Part shown: in pieces, positions 18,631 through 62,625 of the stretch
Layout of the letters: each line of letters begins with the position of its first letter
Position numbering within the stretch: position 1 is the first letter of the stretch
DNA from: Chitinophaga pinensis DSM 2588
GTDB taxonomy: Bacteria > Bacteroidota > Bacteroidia > Chitinophagales > Chitinophagaceae
Assembly: GCF_000024005.1 (NCBI RefSeq)
Contig: NC_013132.1
Span: 4,954,001 to 5,018,000 of the forward strand
Length of the DNA: 64,000 nt
Direction: 5' to 3'
Made by a program: the position numbers and the translations under genes
Notes under the pieces: generated by a model
What the model saw: the letters and a program-made list of their open reading frames with translations, nothing else
Told to the model about the DNA's origin: nothing
The model's database searches: none

Positions 18631-19044
18631 TGACGCCCTTTTTGCGAGAAGGGCTATTGGGCGGTGAGGGGCGTGTTGGGCGTTGGGATGGGGGATTAAG
18701 CCTATCAAGCGGGGCGGGCTCTCAAAGGGCTAAGGCCCTTTGTCTCCACCTCAACCTCTCCGCTGATAACGTCAGGTGGATTGGTAAGGGCGTCTAAATA
18801 TTAATGAGCTGTTTAATTGATCTTGTAATTGATCTTGTAGGTGTTCATTTTTAATGCTTAGATTTTGGTTACTAATTTTTGTTTGTTAATTCTTAATGTT
18901 TGGTGCTTGTTTGCCAATGTTTGTTTGTTGATGCCTGTTTGTTGATTCTTTTTTACTGATTCTTTTTTGCTGATGCTTGTTTATTAATTCTGTCCTGTTT
19001 ATTAATTCTTAATTCCTAATTCTTAATTCTTAATTCCTAATTCT
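18631..19044. other. Gene-free A/T- and T-rich spacer ending in a heptad array
   Basis: The first part (to about 18720) is a diverged continuation of the G/T-rich repeat zone. The middle (18830-18980) is T-rich with irregular TTTGTTTGTTGAT-like runs. The end, about 19002-19044, is an AATTCTT/AATTCCT array, which is AATTAGG/AATTAAG on the minus strand and lies directly after the stop of the minus-strand gene at 19045. No protein gene is supported. Confidence 0.7.
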
Positions 19045-19587
19045 TTACAGTGTTTGCCAGTTTCTTACCAGCTCCGTTAATAATGTTTGTCCGGCGGGCC
19101 AGTCTCCCAGGTTGGAGTCGGCGTTGATGTGTCCTTTTTCGCCGGCATTGACAAACCGGCTTCCCCAGGCATTGGCGAAAGACCTGGCGCGTTCCAGGGT
19201 GGCATACTGGTCGTTGGTACTTGAAACCACAATACTTTTGAAGGGTAATGCAGACATCGGGATGGGGGAGAAGCCATGTGCTTCTTCAGGGAATCCTGGT
19301 CTTTCTGCGTCAGCCGGGGCTACCAGTAAGGCGCCTTTAATGCTGAGTTTTGTGTGTTGCGCCCAGTGGGCGAGTGCGATACATCCCAGGCTATGGGCGG
19401 CAATGACAACGTCCGGACCGGCTGCTGCTACGGCTTCCTCGATTGTCTTTATCCACTCTGTCATTTCTGGTGTGTCCCAATTTTGCTGATCGATACGTTT
19501 GTATCCGGGGTTGTGTTCCCAGATTGTTTGCCAATGCAATGGCCCTGAACCATGTAAACCTGGTGCAGTTAGTACGTTAACTTCCAT
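19045..19587 (-). CDS. RBBP9/YdeN-family serine hydrolase
   Basis: A 180-residue alpha/beta hydrolase of the RBBP9/YdeN group. The N-terminus MEVNVLTAPGLHGSGPLHWQ and the WDTPEMTEWIKTIEEAV stretch are typical. The nucleophile serine lies in AHSLGCIALAHW (about residue 67), the acid is probably in STNDQYA (about residue 125), and the histidine lies in GEKGHINADSNLGDWPAG. There is no signal peptide, so it is cytoplasmic. Substrates of this family are mostly unknown. Transcribed alone, with a heptad array directly behind its stop codon. Confidence 0.88.
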   Translation of the reverse strand: MEVNVLTAPGLHGSGPLHWQTIWEHNPGYKRIDQQNWDTPEMTEWIKTIEEAVAAAGPDVVIAAHSLGCIALAHWAQHTKLSIKGALLVAPADAERPGFPEEAHGFSPIPMSALPFKSIVVSSTNDQYATLERARSFANAWGSRFVNAGEKGHINADSNLGDWPAGQTLLTELVRNWQTL

Positions 19588-19688
19588 AAATAACCCTTTT
19601 TTAAAATACTTCCTTTAGCAAGACAGATGATGGTATAATTGGCACAGCGTTCAACAATGTACAAAAAAGGAATAAAAATACAAGTAGC

Positions 19689-20615
19689 TCAACCGTTAAC
19701 GAAACGCAAATTTCTGCGTATACCGGCATACTTGGACCGCTTCATGGGAGAGCGGCGGAATATGCGTTTGAATTCTTCTTCGGTGAGTTCTTCCCAGTCT
19801 TTGGTCGAAAAATTGAGGATTTCGGGAATGGGCGTAAATTCTACCGTCTTATTGGGTTTGGAAAAACGGTTCCAGGGGCATACGTCCTGGCAGGCATCAC
19901 AGCCAAACATCCAGTTATCAAACTGTCCCTGCATGTTGTCAGGGATCAGTAATTCTTTCAGTTCTATGGTAAAATAGGAAATACAACGGCTGCCGTCTAC
20001 TACTCCTGGTTCGACGAGAGCACCAGTAGGACAGGCGTCGAGACAACGGGTACAGGATCCGCAGAAATCACCTACGGGTCCGTCATACAGGAGTTCCAGG
20101 TCGGTAATGAGGGTGGCGATAAAGAAGAAGGAACCGGCCTGTTTATGGATCAGATTCCCGTTTTTGCCCAGCCATCCCAATCCGCTGCGTTGCGCCCAGC
20201 TTCTTTCCAGTACAGGGGCGGAGTCCACAAAGCCCCGTCCGCTGACAGCCCCGAATTCTTCCTGCATTCTTGCCAGCAGGGTGTTCAGTTTGGCTTTGAT
20301 AACTTCATGATAGTCATGTCCATAGGCGTATTTGGAGATCTTGGGGGTATCCGTGCGCTGTTGCTCCCGGGGGTAGTAATTCAGGAGCAGGGTAATGACG
20401 GATTTTGCATTATCGACGAGTTTGCGGGGATCCACCCGTTTATCGAAATTGTTTTCCATATAATGCATGGATCCATGCATTCCCTTATGCAGCCACTTTT
20501 CCAGGCGACGGGCATCGTCATCCAGCTGCATTGCCTGTGCAATGCCGCAATGATCGAAACCGAGGTCGGCAGCATGCTTCTTAATAAAATCCGTATATTT
20601 TCCCCTTAGGTCCAT
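19689..20615 (-). CDS. queG: Epoxyqueuosine reductase
   Basis: A 308-residue cobalamin- and iron-sulfur-dependent enzyme that reduces epoxyqueuosine to queuosine in tRNA, the last step of queuosine synthesis. Visible features are SKYAYGHDYHEVIKAKL, DSAPVLERSWAQRSGLGWLG with KNGNL, and two 4Fe-4S motifs, CGSCTRCLDACPTGA and CDACQDVCPWN. Length and motif order are normal. The ATG at 20615 is preferred; the open frame extends to a TTG at 20627. Divergent from the DUF3857 pair. No other queuosine gene is nearby. Confidence 0.95.
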   Translation of the reverse strand: MDLRGKYTDFIKKHAADLGFDHCGIAQAMQLDDDARRLEKWLHKGMHGSMHYMENNFDKRVDPRKLVDNAKSVITLLLNYYPREQQRTDTPKISKYAYGHDYHEVIKAKLNTLLARMQEEFGAVSGRGFVDSAPVLERSWAQRSGLGWLGKNGNLIHKQAGSFFFIATLITDLELLYDGPVGDFCGSCTRCLDACPTGALVEPGVVDGSRCISYFTIELKELLIPDNMQGQFDNWMFGCDACQDVCPWNRFSKPNKTVEFTPIPEILNFSTKDWEELTEEEFKRIFRRSPMKRSKYAGIRRNLRFVNG

Positions 20616-20714
20616 GAGTGGCTGCAAGTTACATAAAAATAAAAGTATGCTATAGCAAGTGTTGGAATATCAATTTTACATACCTTCACTTTCAAATAAT
20701 CCTTATATCCTTAT

Positions 20715-61120: not shown

Positions 61121-61126
61121 GCGCGG

Positions 61127-62359
61127 CTATAATATTTCAAGACTTTTAGCAATGATGGCGACAGCTTCTTTCACCTGTGCTGCTGTGATCAGCAATGGCG
61201 GTGCGAAGCGGATTTTATCGCCATGGGTGGGTTTGGCCAGCAAACCATTTTCTTTCAGTGCCAGACAAAGGTCCCAGGCTGCTTCCGGATGAGCGTGGTT
61301 GATGACGATGGCGTTGAGCAGCCCCTTTCCACGGATAGTGCTGATATGAGGAGATTGGAGCGCGGCCAGTTCCTTTCTGAGCAGTTCGCCCATTGCGGCA
61401 GCATTTTCCGTCATTTTCTCTTCTTTCAATACAGTCAGTGCTACGATGGCTACTTTACAGGCCAGCGGGTTACCACCATAGGTGCTGCCATGTTCACCCG
61501 GTTTGATGGTAAGCATGATCTCGTCATCTGCCAGTACGGCGGCTACCGGTAAGATACCTCCGGAGAGTGCCTTTCCGAGTATCAGGATGTCCGGACGTAC
61601 GTTTTCGTGGTCGCAGCAAAGCATCTTTCCCGTACGGGCAAGGCCGGTCTGGATCTCGTCGGCGATAAACAATACGTTGGCGTCTTCACAGTACTGACGG
61701 GCTTTGGAGAGGTATCCGTCATCGGGTACCATCACACCAGCTTCTCCCTGTATCGGCTCTACGAGGAAGCCGGCTACGTTGTTGTCCTGAAGGGCTCTTT
61801 CCAGTGCCGCCAGGTTATTATATGGAATCACTTCATATCCCGGCATAAACGGACCGAAGTTCGTCCGGGAAGAAGGATCTGTACTAAAGGAAATAACATT
61901 CAGGGTACGGCCATGGAAGTTGTTGGCGCATACGATGATCTTAGCCTGGTTTTCGGGAATACCTTTTACCACATAGCCCCAGCGGCGGGCCAGTTTAAGC
62001 GCTGTTTCCACAGCTTCTACGCCGGTGTTCATCGGCAATACTTTGTCGTAGCCGAAGTAGCGGGTGATAAAGGCAGCGTATTCGCCGAGCAGGTCATTGT
62101 GAAAAGCACGGGAGGTCAATGTCAGGCGCTGTGCCTGTTCGGTTAAGGCGCGGATGATTGTCGGGTGACAATGCCCCTGGTTCACCGCAGAATAACCTGA
62201 CAGGAAATCGAAATAACGTTTACCGTCAACGTCCCAGAGAAAAACACCTTCCCCGCGATCCAGCACTACGGGCAATGGATGGTAGTTGTGAGCCCCGTAT
62301 TGTTCTTCCAGGTCCAGAAAATGCTGGGTCTTTTCACTGATATTAAATGTGTGTAACAT
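61127..62359 (-). CDS. rocD: Ornithine aminotransferase
   Basis: A 410-residue class III PLP aminotransferase converting ornithine to glutamate semialdehyde. Visible marks are EEQYGAHNYHPLPVVLDRGE (ornithine aminotransferase N-terminus), FLSGYSAVNQGHCHP, NTGVEAVETALKLARRWGY, NFHGRTLNVISFSTD, FIADEIQTGLARTGK with the PLP Asp, and ILGKALSGGILPVAAVLAD with the PLP Lys. The Ser-Gly-Tyr-Ser and NYHPLP patterns favour ornithine over acetylornithine. ATG 62359 is preferred over a TTG at 62368. The VIT-like gene follows 6 bases later. Confidence 0.93.
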   Translation of the reverse strand: MLHTFNISEKTQHFLDLEEQYGAHNYHPLPVVLDRGEGVFLWDVDGKRYFDFLSGYSAVNQGHCHPTIIRALTEQAQRLTLTSRAFHNDLLGEYAAFITRYFGYDKVLPMNTGVEAVETALKLARRWGYVVKGIPENQAKIIVCANNFHGRTLNVISFSTDPSSRTNFGPFMPGYEVIPYNNLAALERALQDNNVAGFLVEPIQGEAGVMVPDDGYLSKARQYCEDANVLFIADEIQTGLARTGKMLCCDHENVRPDILILGKALSGGILPVAAVLADDEIMLTIKPGEHGSTYGGNPLACKVAIVALTVLKEEKMTENAAAMGELLRKELAALQSPHISTIRGKGLLNAIVINHAHPEAAWDLCLALKENGLLAKPTHGDKIRFAPPLLITAAQVKEAVAIIAKSLEIL

Positions 62360-62371
62360 ACTCCCCAAAGG

Positions 62372-62625
62372 TAATTAGGAATTGGGGATTTAGGAATTAG
62401 GAATTGGTCAGTCTGTTGAGAGGAAGGCGGAATTTGTGAAAATAAGGTATAATTCGGGAGGCTGGTGTATGGAATTAAGAATTAAGAATTAGGAATTAAG
62501 AATTAAGAATTAAGAATTATTTTATTATGGCAAATATCTATGGGGAATTTTATAGAATGAGACAATGAGTCAAACTCCTCCCAATTACACCCCTATTCCT
62601 AATTCTTAATTCCTAATTCCTAATT
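62372..62625. repeat. Intergenic heptad arrays between rocD and the acyl-CoA-binding gene
   Basis: Plus-strand AATTAGG arrays at 62372-62405 and AATTAAG/AATTAGG at 62471-62519 face an inverse array at 62595-62625, which ends 2 bases before the stop of the acyl-CoA-binding gene. The first array lies 12 bases upstream of the rocD start, so any rocD promoter must lie in or beyond it. Confidence 0.85.

What the first reader, a model, noticed from the sequence alone, without database searches (positions are those of the whole stretch)
18990..62625. Dispersed heptanucleotide arrays placed right behind stop codons
AATTAGG/AATTAAG heptads form at least a dozen arrays in the window (for example 19002-19044, 29194-29354, 29550-29582, 35083-35115, 42302-42386, 60237-60268, 60438-60475, 62372-62625). 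Eight genes have an array starting within about 10 bases of their stop codon: RBBP9-like, guaD, the 60-residue protein, M28 peptidase, RND adaptor, the small membrane protein, VIT-like and the acyl-CoA-binding gene. In all eight, the array reads AATTAGG/AATTAAG in the gene's own sense. This is directly visible. The regularity resembles the short tandem heptamers known from cyanobacteria but with another sequence and a gene-end bias. I know of no description of this family.
Basis: seen in the sequence. Interest (0 to 1): 0.78.

Follow-up and report, generated by a model that had tools for sequence, protein, structure and literature searches.

The report
Paired heptad repeats at gene edges
Hundreds of short blocks of a seven-letter DNA word sit right behind gene ends in this bacterium, mostly as mirror-image pairs; the layout was described in 2015 for G-rich words in other bacteria, but here the word is A/T-rich, so the four-stranded DNA fold suggested then is not needed for it.

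Summary
The window has 15 AATTARG arrays, 8 flush behind a stop codon in the gene's sense. In a 1.66-Mb sample of this genome, 62 of 118 arrays have a stop within 20 bp on their 5' side (random placement: mean 7.4, maximum 15 in 500 trials); none has one that close on the 3' side.

Arrays have a preferred size of four units and are mostly arms of inward-pointing inverted pairs bracketing an intergenic region: 49 '+-' neighbours, 0 '-+'. At several orthologous gaps read, sister species lack both arms or have both in another unit type. A 27-nt version occurs under record titles from many phyla, mostly MAGs, with the same geometry.

The kind is known: Rehm et al. 2015 (PMC4692102) described GGGAATC (Xanthomonas) and GGGGA(C/T)T (Nostoc) arrays with four-unit preference, gene-edge strand bias and (Xanthomonas) convergent pairs, tentatively linked to G-quadruplexes. 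Here four G3 runs occur in 0 of 118 arrays and four G2 runs in 5, so quadruplexes are not needed. A dispersed, hairpin-forming, probably non-autonomous repeat fits best; its mobiliser is unknown, and no Y1 (RAYT-type) transposase was found.

The parts
19002..19045 (-). heptad array flush behind the stop of the Ser_hydrolase (RBBP9-like) gene 19045-19587(-); no partner within 500 bp
29196..29229 (+). array overlapping the stop codon of the deaminase gene 28718-29197(+); G068 has an arm with other units at the same place, G036 a degenerate one; left without a partner by the pairing rule
29273..29354 (+). long array (11 exact units), left arm of a pair with 29551-29582, 75 bp behind a stop
29551..29582 (-). 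right arm, 8 bp behind the stop of the 60-aa ORF 29591-29773(-)
35084..35117 (+). array overlapping the end of the M28 peptidase gene 32865-35096(+); 3 units in G068, about 1 in G036; no heptad partner
42302..42337 (+). left arm of an 83-bp hairpin; contains the stop of the HlyD-type gene 41219-42307(+); G068 and G036 have an ordinary terminator-like hairpin in this gap instead
42348..42384 (-). right arm of the 83-bp hairpin
42900..42926 (+). array (left arm) in a long gap
43165..43196 (-). array (right arm), inside the first copy of a 117-bp tandem duplication
43282..43313 (-). array in the second copy of the 117-bp duplication, 72 bp behind the stop of 43386-44258(-), after a terminator-like hairpin
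60237..60270 (+). left arm, 4 bp behind the stop of 59852-60232(+)
60438..60477 (-). right arm, flush behind the stop of the VIT1-domain gene 60476-61120(-); the terminator between the arms resembles by eye those in G068 and G036; arms short in G036, no clear arms in G068, G001 and G041
62386..62407 (+). degenerate array
62471..62519 (+). left arm (6 exact units)
62595..62625 (-). right arm, 2 bp behind the stop of the ACBP gene 62628-62888(-)

Best explanation
The arrays are the arms of a dispersed, non-coding repeat family. SHOWN in the sample: the commonest arm is four AATTANN heptads plus AATT; arms are mostly in inward-pointing pairs; the 5' (outer) end is usually the one nearer a gene; some arms carry a shared tail (ATGCAGCGGAGA) seen only beside arrays; the short-interior pairs that I folded are near-perfect hairpins. 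At several gene edges, sister species have no arms, short arms, long arms, or both arms of another unit type. INFERRED: it behaves like a non-autonomous intergenic repeat of REP/BIME/MITE style that spreads or is overwritten at gene edges, is kept in register by hairpin-templated repair or ectopic gene conversion, grows by slippage, and is mostly tolerated rather than needed. It works like the G-rich heptad arrays of Xanthomonas and Nostoc; if the two share a cause, that cause is not G-quadruplex formation.
For: Pairs: 49 '+-', 0 '-+', 2 '++', 3 '--' among neighbours closer than 500 bp. Cognate arms more alike than re-paired ones: mean score 25.05 against 23.02 +/- 0.50, 0 of 5000 permutations (43 of 49 pairs; 6 with an arm of 60 nt or more dropped); the effect is modest, a cognate arm beats 61% of others on average. 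Four-unit mode: 60 of 110 arrays. Tail ATGCAGCGGAGA: 11 of 11 occurrences within 60 bp of an array. Presence/absence: L068:10763, about 47 bp with one array here, absent in G068 and G036. Both arms of another unit type in relatives: L031:8846 and L068:17284. Both arms long here, short in G036, not seen in G068: window 60237-60477. Hairpins: z -7.2 to -11.8 for the four short elements folded. Genus: hairpin pattern with AATYARGAATT arms in 19 of 79 genomes, backward control in 1 of 79. Other taxa: 20 '+-', 0 '-+', 14 '++', 7 '--', 5' neighbour closer for 96 of 123 arrays; in the 40 loci whose titles are not Bacteroidota, 13 '+-', 0 '-+', and 51 of 66.
Against: No mobilising enzyme was found: no Y1_Tnp in this genome; other transposase families were not searched. 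No clear target-site duplication by eye at the one site looked at (L068:10763). At window 60237 the arms flank a terminator that resembles the relatives', which insertion of one palindromic unit does not explain. Placement flush with stops needs targeting or selection that is unexplained. For 78 of 118 arrays neither recurrent tail was assigned by a crude motif rule, and the second tail, GGTTAGCC, is not specific (8 of 35 occurrences near an array). Rehm et al. report that 83% of Xcc repeats keep their gene context in Xac and that these loci are more stable than controls, which fits a mobile repeat poorly.
Confidence: 0.5

Rival explanations
1. Functional 3'-end RNA element: the arm is the start of the 3' UTR, and the paired arms, or a protein bound to the UUARG repeats, stabilise the mRNA or help termination.
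For: Sense orientation behind stops; near-perfect hairpins in the four folded; at window 42302 a hairpin element stands where G068 and G036 have an ordinary terminator-like hairpin; a whole element at L050:3620 is well conserved in G041.
Against: Terminator-like sites are about equally frequent with and without arms: convergent 15 of 31 against 87 of 191, tandem 6 of 28 against 95 of 368. Many arms lie antisense before starts. Arms are absent from the nearest relative G068 at window 42302, window 60237, L031:2233, L068:10763 and L068:19119. No expression data were used.
Confidence: 0.22
2. Local growth: short terminator-like palindromes at gene ends (ATCAGGAAT...ATTCCTGAT) grew in place into heptad arms by slippage, with hairpin-templated (quasi-palindrome) copying keeping both arms alike; no mobility.
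For: At trxB-folB, 7 of the 18 genomes read have one short hairpin of this type in a short gap, and the four nearest relatives have longer heptad-like arms; graded unit numbers at orthologous sites; cognate arm similarity.
Against: ATCAGGAAT is not enriched behind stops. The tail attached only to arrays, an about 47-bp array present against absent and the same word under titles of many phyla call for copying or a common template. Slippage alone would also give other periods, which are almost missing.
Confidence: 0.2
3. Repeat addition at DNA ends (telomerase-like, or by a tandem-repeat reverse transcriptase such as DRT10): heptads added to both 3' ends of a break at a gene edge, then joined, giving inward pairs.
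For: Would explain inward-only pairs, a defined unit number and unique outer junctions. A bacterial tandem-repeat reverse transcriptase has been described (preprint PMC12632851, passages only).
Against: Of five RVT_1 hits in this genome, none has an AATTARG match of 10-11 nt in the fetched DNA (about 1.5 kb either side); one ACG-type 11-mer lies inside the open frame of L372 (shorter templates not looked for). Independent additions would not give matching variants in both arms.
Confidence: 0.04
4. Stop-codon safety net: AATTAAG and AATTAGG carry TAA/TAG, and a period of 7 puts a stop in all three frames.
For: True of the AAG and AGG units by inspection; four units suffice for all frames.
Against: AATTACG and AATCAGG units at orthologous sites and the GGGAATC unit have no sense stop by inspection; arms before starts have no such role.
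Confidence: 0.04

Closest known systems
GGGAATC (Xanthomonas) and GGGGA(C/T)T (Nostoc PCC 7120) heptad arrays, Rehm et al. 2015, PMC4692102 (abstract, passages, sections 10, 13, 14, 16 seen)
   Same: Heptad unit, four-unit preference, intergenic, nearer to the 5' neighbouring ORF whatever its strand, sense behind stops and antisense before starts, rare between divergent ORFs; in Xanthomonas 70 and 75 convergent pairs and mostly the same gene context in a relative with varying length.
   Different: Unit is A/T-rich: four G3 runs in 0 of 118 arrays, four G2 runs in 5. Arms differ more between relatives here, sometimes both at once. Some carry a shared tail. [quoted passage not shown] for Xanthomonas it finds the loci unusually stable.
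TAACTGA direct repeats in Beggiatoaceae, cyanobacteria and a few Bacteroidetes, MacGregor 2015, PMC4679880 (abstract and section 10 seen)
   Same: Short intergenic heptad arrays, patchy across phyla.
   Different: Another word; in the BOGUAY genome mostly just upstream of start codons, 169 direct sets and one indirect repeat.
Cyanobacterial STRR heptanucleotides (recalled; search listing only)
   Same: Dispersed tandem heptanucleotides.
   Different: Another word; geometry at gene edges not compared here.
REP/BIME/REPIN elements with RAYT transposases (search listings only; details recalled)
   Same: Hundreds of extragenic copies, inverted doublets, variable spacer.
   Different: A single arm is not itself a clear palindrome, no GTAG tag was looked for, and no Y1 transposase was found in this genome.

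Membership tests
Rehm-type gene-edge heptad arrays | heptamer tandem unit with a mode of four | tested here: met
   60 of 110 arrays have four units; 28 of 55 arrays of three or more units in the 80 stretches without the window
Rehm-type gene-edge heptad arrays | closer to the 5' neighbouring ORF whatever its strand | tested here: met
   105 of 118 here; 96 of 123 in the loci
Rehm-type gene-edge heptad arrays | sense behind stops, antisense before starts | tested here: met
   AATYARGAAT sense at 64 and antisense at 2 of 843 3' ends; sense at 4 and antisense at 21 of 936 5' ends
Rehm-type gene-edge heptad arrays | convergent pairs; rare between divergent ORFs | tested here: met
   49 '+-', 0 '-+'; 2 of 49 pairs between divergent genes, which make up 193 of 782 gaps of 60 bp or more
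Rehm-type gene-edge heptad arrays | G-tracts able to form quadruplexes; unit GGGNATC or GGGGAYT | tested here: not met
   four G3 runs in 0 of 118 arrays, four G2 runs in 5 of 118
REPIN/BIME with RAYT | Y1 (RAYT-type) transposase in the genome | tested here: not met
   0 matches to PF01797; the control rings in 5 of 14 genomes
MITE | terminal inverted repeats | tested here: met
   pairs; four folded
MITE | target-site duplication | tested here: inconclusive
   at L068:10763 none clear by eye; no systematic test
MITE | autonomous parent transposon with the same ends | not tested
   only about 18% of the genome was read
Intrinsic terminator | GC-rich stem followed by a T tract | tested here: not met
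   no such site in any of the 12 pairs with an interior under 45 bp (4 of 24 at 45-119 bp, 8 of 13 at 120 bp or more, there as separate hairpins)
TAACTGA repeats | unit TAACTGA, just before starts | tested here: not met
   another unit, antisense before starts

The most novel reading that the evidence does not exclude
A single heptad superfamily (from GGGAATC through GGGAATT and AGGAATT to AAGAATT) is written at gene edges across much of the bacterial domain by an undiscovered mechanism that sets the unit number near four, the outward-facing end and the matching of both arms, independent of G-quadruplexes. Hint: in 24 of the 80 loci a GGGAATT unit stands beside AGGAATT-type units, though the pattern itself asked for a closing AATTGG, which favours this.
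Probability: 0.2. Interest if true: 0.88.

Novelty: new variant of a known kind. Interest (0 to 1): 0.55.

Why it matters
The four-unit preference of bacterial heptad arrays has been read as a sign of G-quadruplex formation (Rehm et al. 2015). Here the same preference and geometry occur with an A/T-rich word that as a rule cannot fold that way, so a more general cause is likely: a mobiliser, a repair or copying mechanism, or a selective force at gene edges. Chitinophaga, where sister species differ in arms at identical sites, makes that testable.

Tried and rejected
RAYT/REPIN membership: no Y1 transposase. Telomerase-like or DRT10-like writing: no AATTARG match near the five reverse-transcriptase hits; kept only as a low-probability rival. 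Terminator replacement as a general function: no clear difference in terminator frequency with and without arms, although window 42302 looks like one replacement. Stop-codon safety net: units without stops exist at orthologous sites. Plain slippage: only period 7 with this word is abundant. Simple insertion of a palindromic MITE: does not fit window 60237, where a relatives-like terminator lies between the arms. My idea of a genus-wide seed ATCAGGAAT behind stops was not borne out (sense at 0 of 843 3' ends here, 0 of 92 in G001, 0 of 85 in G017, 2 of 100 in G068, 1 of 106 in G041); it rests on the trxB-folB gap. The backward control is self-similar and was not used; those are cleaner. The viral control words gave 12 and 14 stretches against 50, but their arrays show a similar 5' preference (16 of 20 and 17 of 24), so the gene-edge rule may hold for heptad arrays in general.

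Limits: genes in this genome come from my own caller (1255 genes, 85% coding); a first version (1142 genes, 77% coding) missed several long ORFs and was replaced. Genes in other taxa are longest-ORF picks. Most hits are MAG contigs, so misbinning is possible for single loci; 80 of at least 120 stretches were listed, and two of them (L269, L285) are Chitinophaga. Assignment of 40 of the 80 to non-Bacteroidota is mine, from the record titles.
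Full report
CHECK OF THE OBSERVATION. A tolerant profile scan finds 15 in the window. The eight gene/array pairs are confirmed in place and orientation. The genome is one contig of 9,127,347 bp, a size I recall for Chitinophaga pinensis DSM 2588; no call names it. I could not lay the whole genome and read 80 evenly spaced 20-kb stretches plus the window, 1.664 Mb or 18%. 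There are 118 arrays in it, and none in 20 of the stretches shuffled three times each, one strand scanned. Of 28 perfect tandem arrays (at least 21 nt and 2.5 units, periods 4-12), 26 have period 7, at least 25 of them AATTANG. So this heptad is nearly the only short tandem repeat of the sample.

GENE-EDGE BIAS. With genes from my own caller (1255 genes, 85% coding), 62 of 118 arrays have a stop within 20 bp on their 5' side, overlaps included; random placement in gaps of 40 bp or more gives a mean of 7.4 and at most 15 in 500 trials; on the 3' side the count is 0. Where the 5' neighbour is a gene start (39 of 118), 13 lie within 20 bp of it. Overall the 5' neighbour is the closer one for 105 of 118 arrays. 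AATYARGAAT is found sense at 64 and antisense at 2 of 843 3' ends, and sense at 4 and antisense at 21 of 936 5' ends with a gap of 40 bp or more. Of 22 arrays more than 12 bp behind a stop, 5 follow at least 5 T in 6 bases, against 1 of 57 flush ones and 2 of 39 behind starts; by eye these lie right behind a terminator.

ANATOMY. Arrays within 500 bp of each other are '+-' 49 times, '-+' never, '++' 2 and '--' 3; 20 arrays stay unpaired. Of the 49 pairs, 18 lie between convergent genes, 28 between tandem genes, 2 between divergent genes, and 1 overlaps a called gene; the gaps of 60 bp or more available are 138 convergent, 451 tandem and 193 divergent. In 10 of 18 convergent gaps both arms are within 20 bp of a stop, in 6 one arm, in 2 neither; in tandem gaps the arm behind the stop is within 20 bp in 25 of 28 and the arm before the start in 10 of 28. 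Four units before a closing AATT is the mode, 60 of 110. The four short-interior pairs folded are near-perfect hairpins (z -7.2 to -11.8). Cognate arms are more alike than re-paired arms (0 of 5000 permutations, 43 of 49 pairs, modest effect). The 12-mer ATGCAGCGGAGA occurs 11 times in the sample, always within 60 bp of an array; a second recurrent neighbour, GGTTAGCC, is not specific (8 of 35).

RELATIVES. A triple-heptad pattern is in 13 of 79 Chitinophaga genomes including this one (398 matches here; next 40, 19 and 11). A hairpin pattern with AATYARGAATT arms is in 19 of 79 (backward control 1 of 79). In equal samples of 200 kb, AATYARGAAT stands sense at 13 of 100 3' ends in G068, 1 of 92 in G001, 0 of 85 in G017 and 0 of 106 in G041. 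Orthologous gaps: trxB-folB read in 18 of 30 fetched genomes, yigZ-hbd, a convergent pair here, in 20 of 30, and others in up to four near relatives. Findings, by eye on the printed gaps: (a) window 60237-60477: arms long here, short in G036, no clear arms in G068, G001 and G041, with a similar terminator between in G036 and G068; (b) window 42302: a hairpin element here, an ordinary terminator-like hairpin in G068 and G036; (c) L068:17284: the left arm (AGG/ACG units) is shared with G036, while G068 has a hairpin with AAG/AAA units on both sides; (d) L031:8846: AAG arms here, ACG arms in G068 and G036, AGG/AAG arms in G001; (e) L068:10763: about 47 bp with one array here, absent in G068 and G036; (f) L050:3620: whole element well conserved in G041; (g) L031:2233: arms here, none in G068 and G001, a similar interior with rudimentary arms in G036; (h) yigZ-hbd: arms at both stops here, one short arm in G068; (i) window 29195 and 35084: single arms with other unit numbers or types in G068 and degenerate or shorter ones in G036; (j) trxB-folB: seven further species have a single short hairpin (ATCAGGAAT type). 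Case (j) did not generalise: ATCAGGAAT is not enriched behind stops.

OTHER TAXA. Titles name Bacteroidota, Verrucomicrobiota, Acidobacteria, Chloroflexi, Gemmatimonadota, Treponema, a Nostoc and others, mostly MAGs. In these 80 loci neighbouring arrays are '+-' 20, '-+' 0, '++' 14, '--' 7; 96 of 123 intergenic arrays are nearer to the 5' neighbour; a stop within 20 bp is on the 5' side in 54 and on the 3' side in 12. In the 40 loci that I take from the titles as not Bacteroidota: '+-' 13, '-+' 0, '++' 2, '--' 4; 5' closer 51 of 66; stop within 20 bp 28 against 7. Virus-catalogue contigs have 50 stretches against 12 and 14 for two control words, with '+-' 13, '-+' 0, '++' 1, '--' 1 and 5' closer for 74 of 99; the control words show a similar 5' preference in small numbers (16 of 20, 17 of 24).

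WHAT IS KNOWN. Rehm et al. 2015 (PMC4692102; abstract, passages and sections 10, 13, 14, 16 seen) describe GGGAATC arrays in two Xanthomonas and GGGGA(C/T)T arrays in Nostoc with the same four-unit preference, the same 5'-neighbour rule, a similar strand rule at stops and starts, and rarity between divergent genes; [quoted passage not shown] They link four units to G-quadruplexes, find the loci unusually stable, and leave function open. MacGregor 2015 (PMC4679880; abstract and section 10) describes TAACTGA arrays, mostly before starts in one genome. No paper describing AATTARG arrays appeared in the listings of my searches (one search listed 20 of 1,529); most subscription papers are not in that library.

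INTERPRETATION. The present arrays meet the tested features of the Rehm type except the quadruplex-forming unit: 0 of 118 have four G3 runs and 5 of 118 four G2 runs. Quadruplex formation is therefore not needed for the four-unit mode or the gene-edge geometry. I favour a dispersed non-autonomous repeat whose paired arms are copied and homogenised (0.5). A functional 3' RNA element (0.22) is not excluded, but terminator-like sites are about equally common with and without arms. Local growth by slippage and hairpin-templated copying (0.2) explains graded unit numbers but not the shared tail and the cross-phylum word. No Y1 transposase and no AATTARG template near a reverse transcriptase were found.

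Noticed in passing
18388-18625: Three tandem copies of an 80-bp unit in the gap before the array at 19002.
   Followed up: no
43092-43332: A 117-bp unit containing an array is duplicated in tandem.
   Followed up: no
35190-35300: TATAGTCAGACTATA / TATAGTCTGACTATA: a second dispersed palindromic word, top of the list of repeated intergenic 14-mers without AATT (count 10 over both strands of all gaps in the sample).
   Followed up: no
L031:2233-2613: A long ATCT tetranucleotide run inside the interior of an array pair.
   Followed up: no
L368, L369 (G000:C1:3123413 and 7588564): Two reverse-transcriptase frames of equal length with the same first 80 residues, group II intron-like by eye.
   Followed up: no
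L302, L319: Gaps that open with AATTAGG units behind a stop and end in ACTGA-like repeats right before an ATG, which recall the TAACTGA repeats of MacGregor 2015.
   Followed up: no
L380, L413: Virus-catalogue contigs in which arrays and nearly all called genes run in one direction, most arrays squeezed between a stop and a start 11-12 bp further on.
   Followed up: partly
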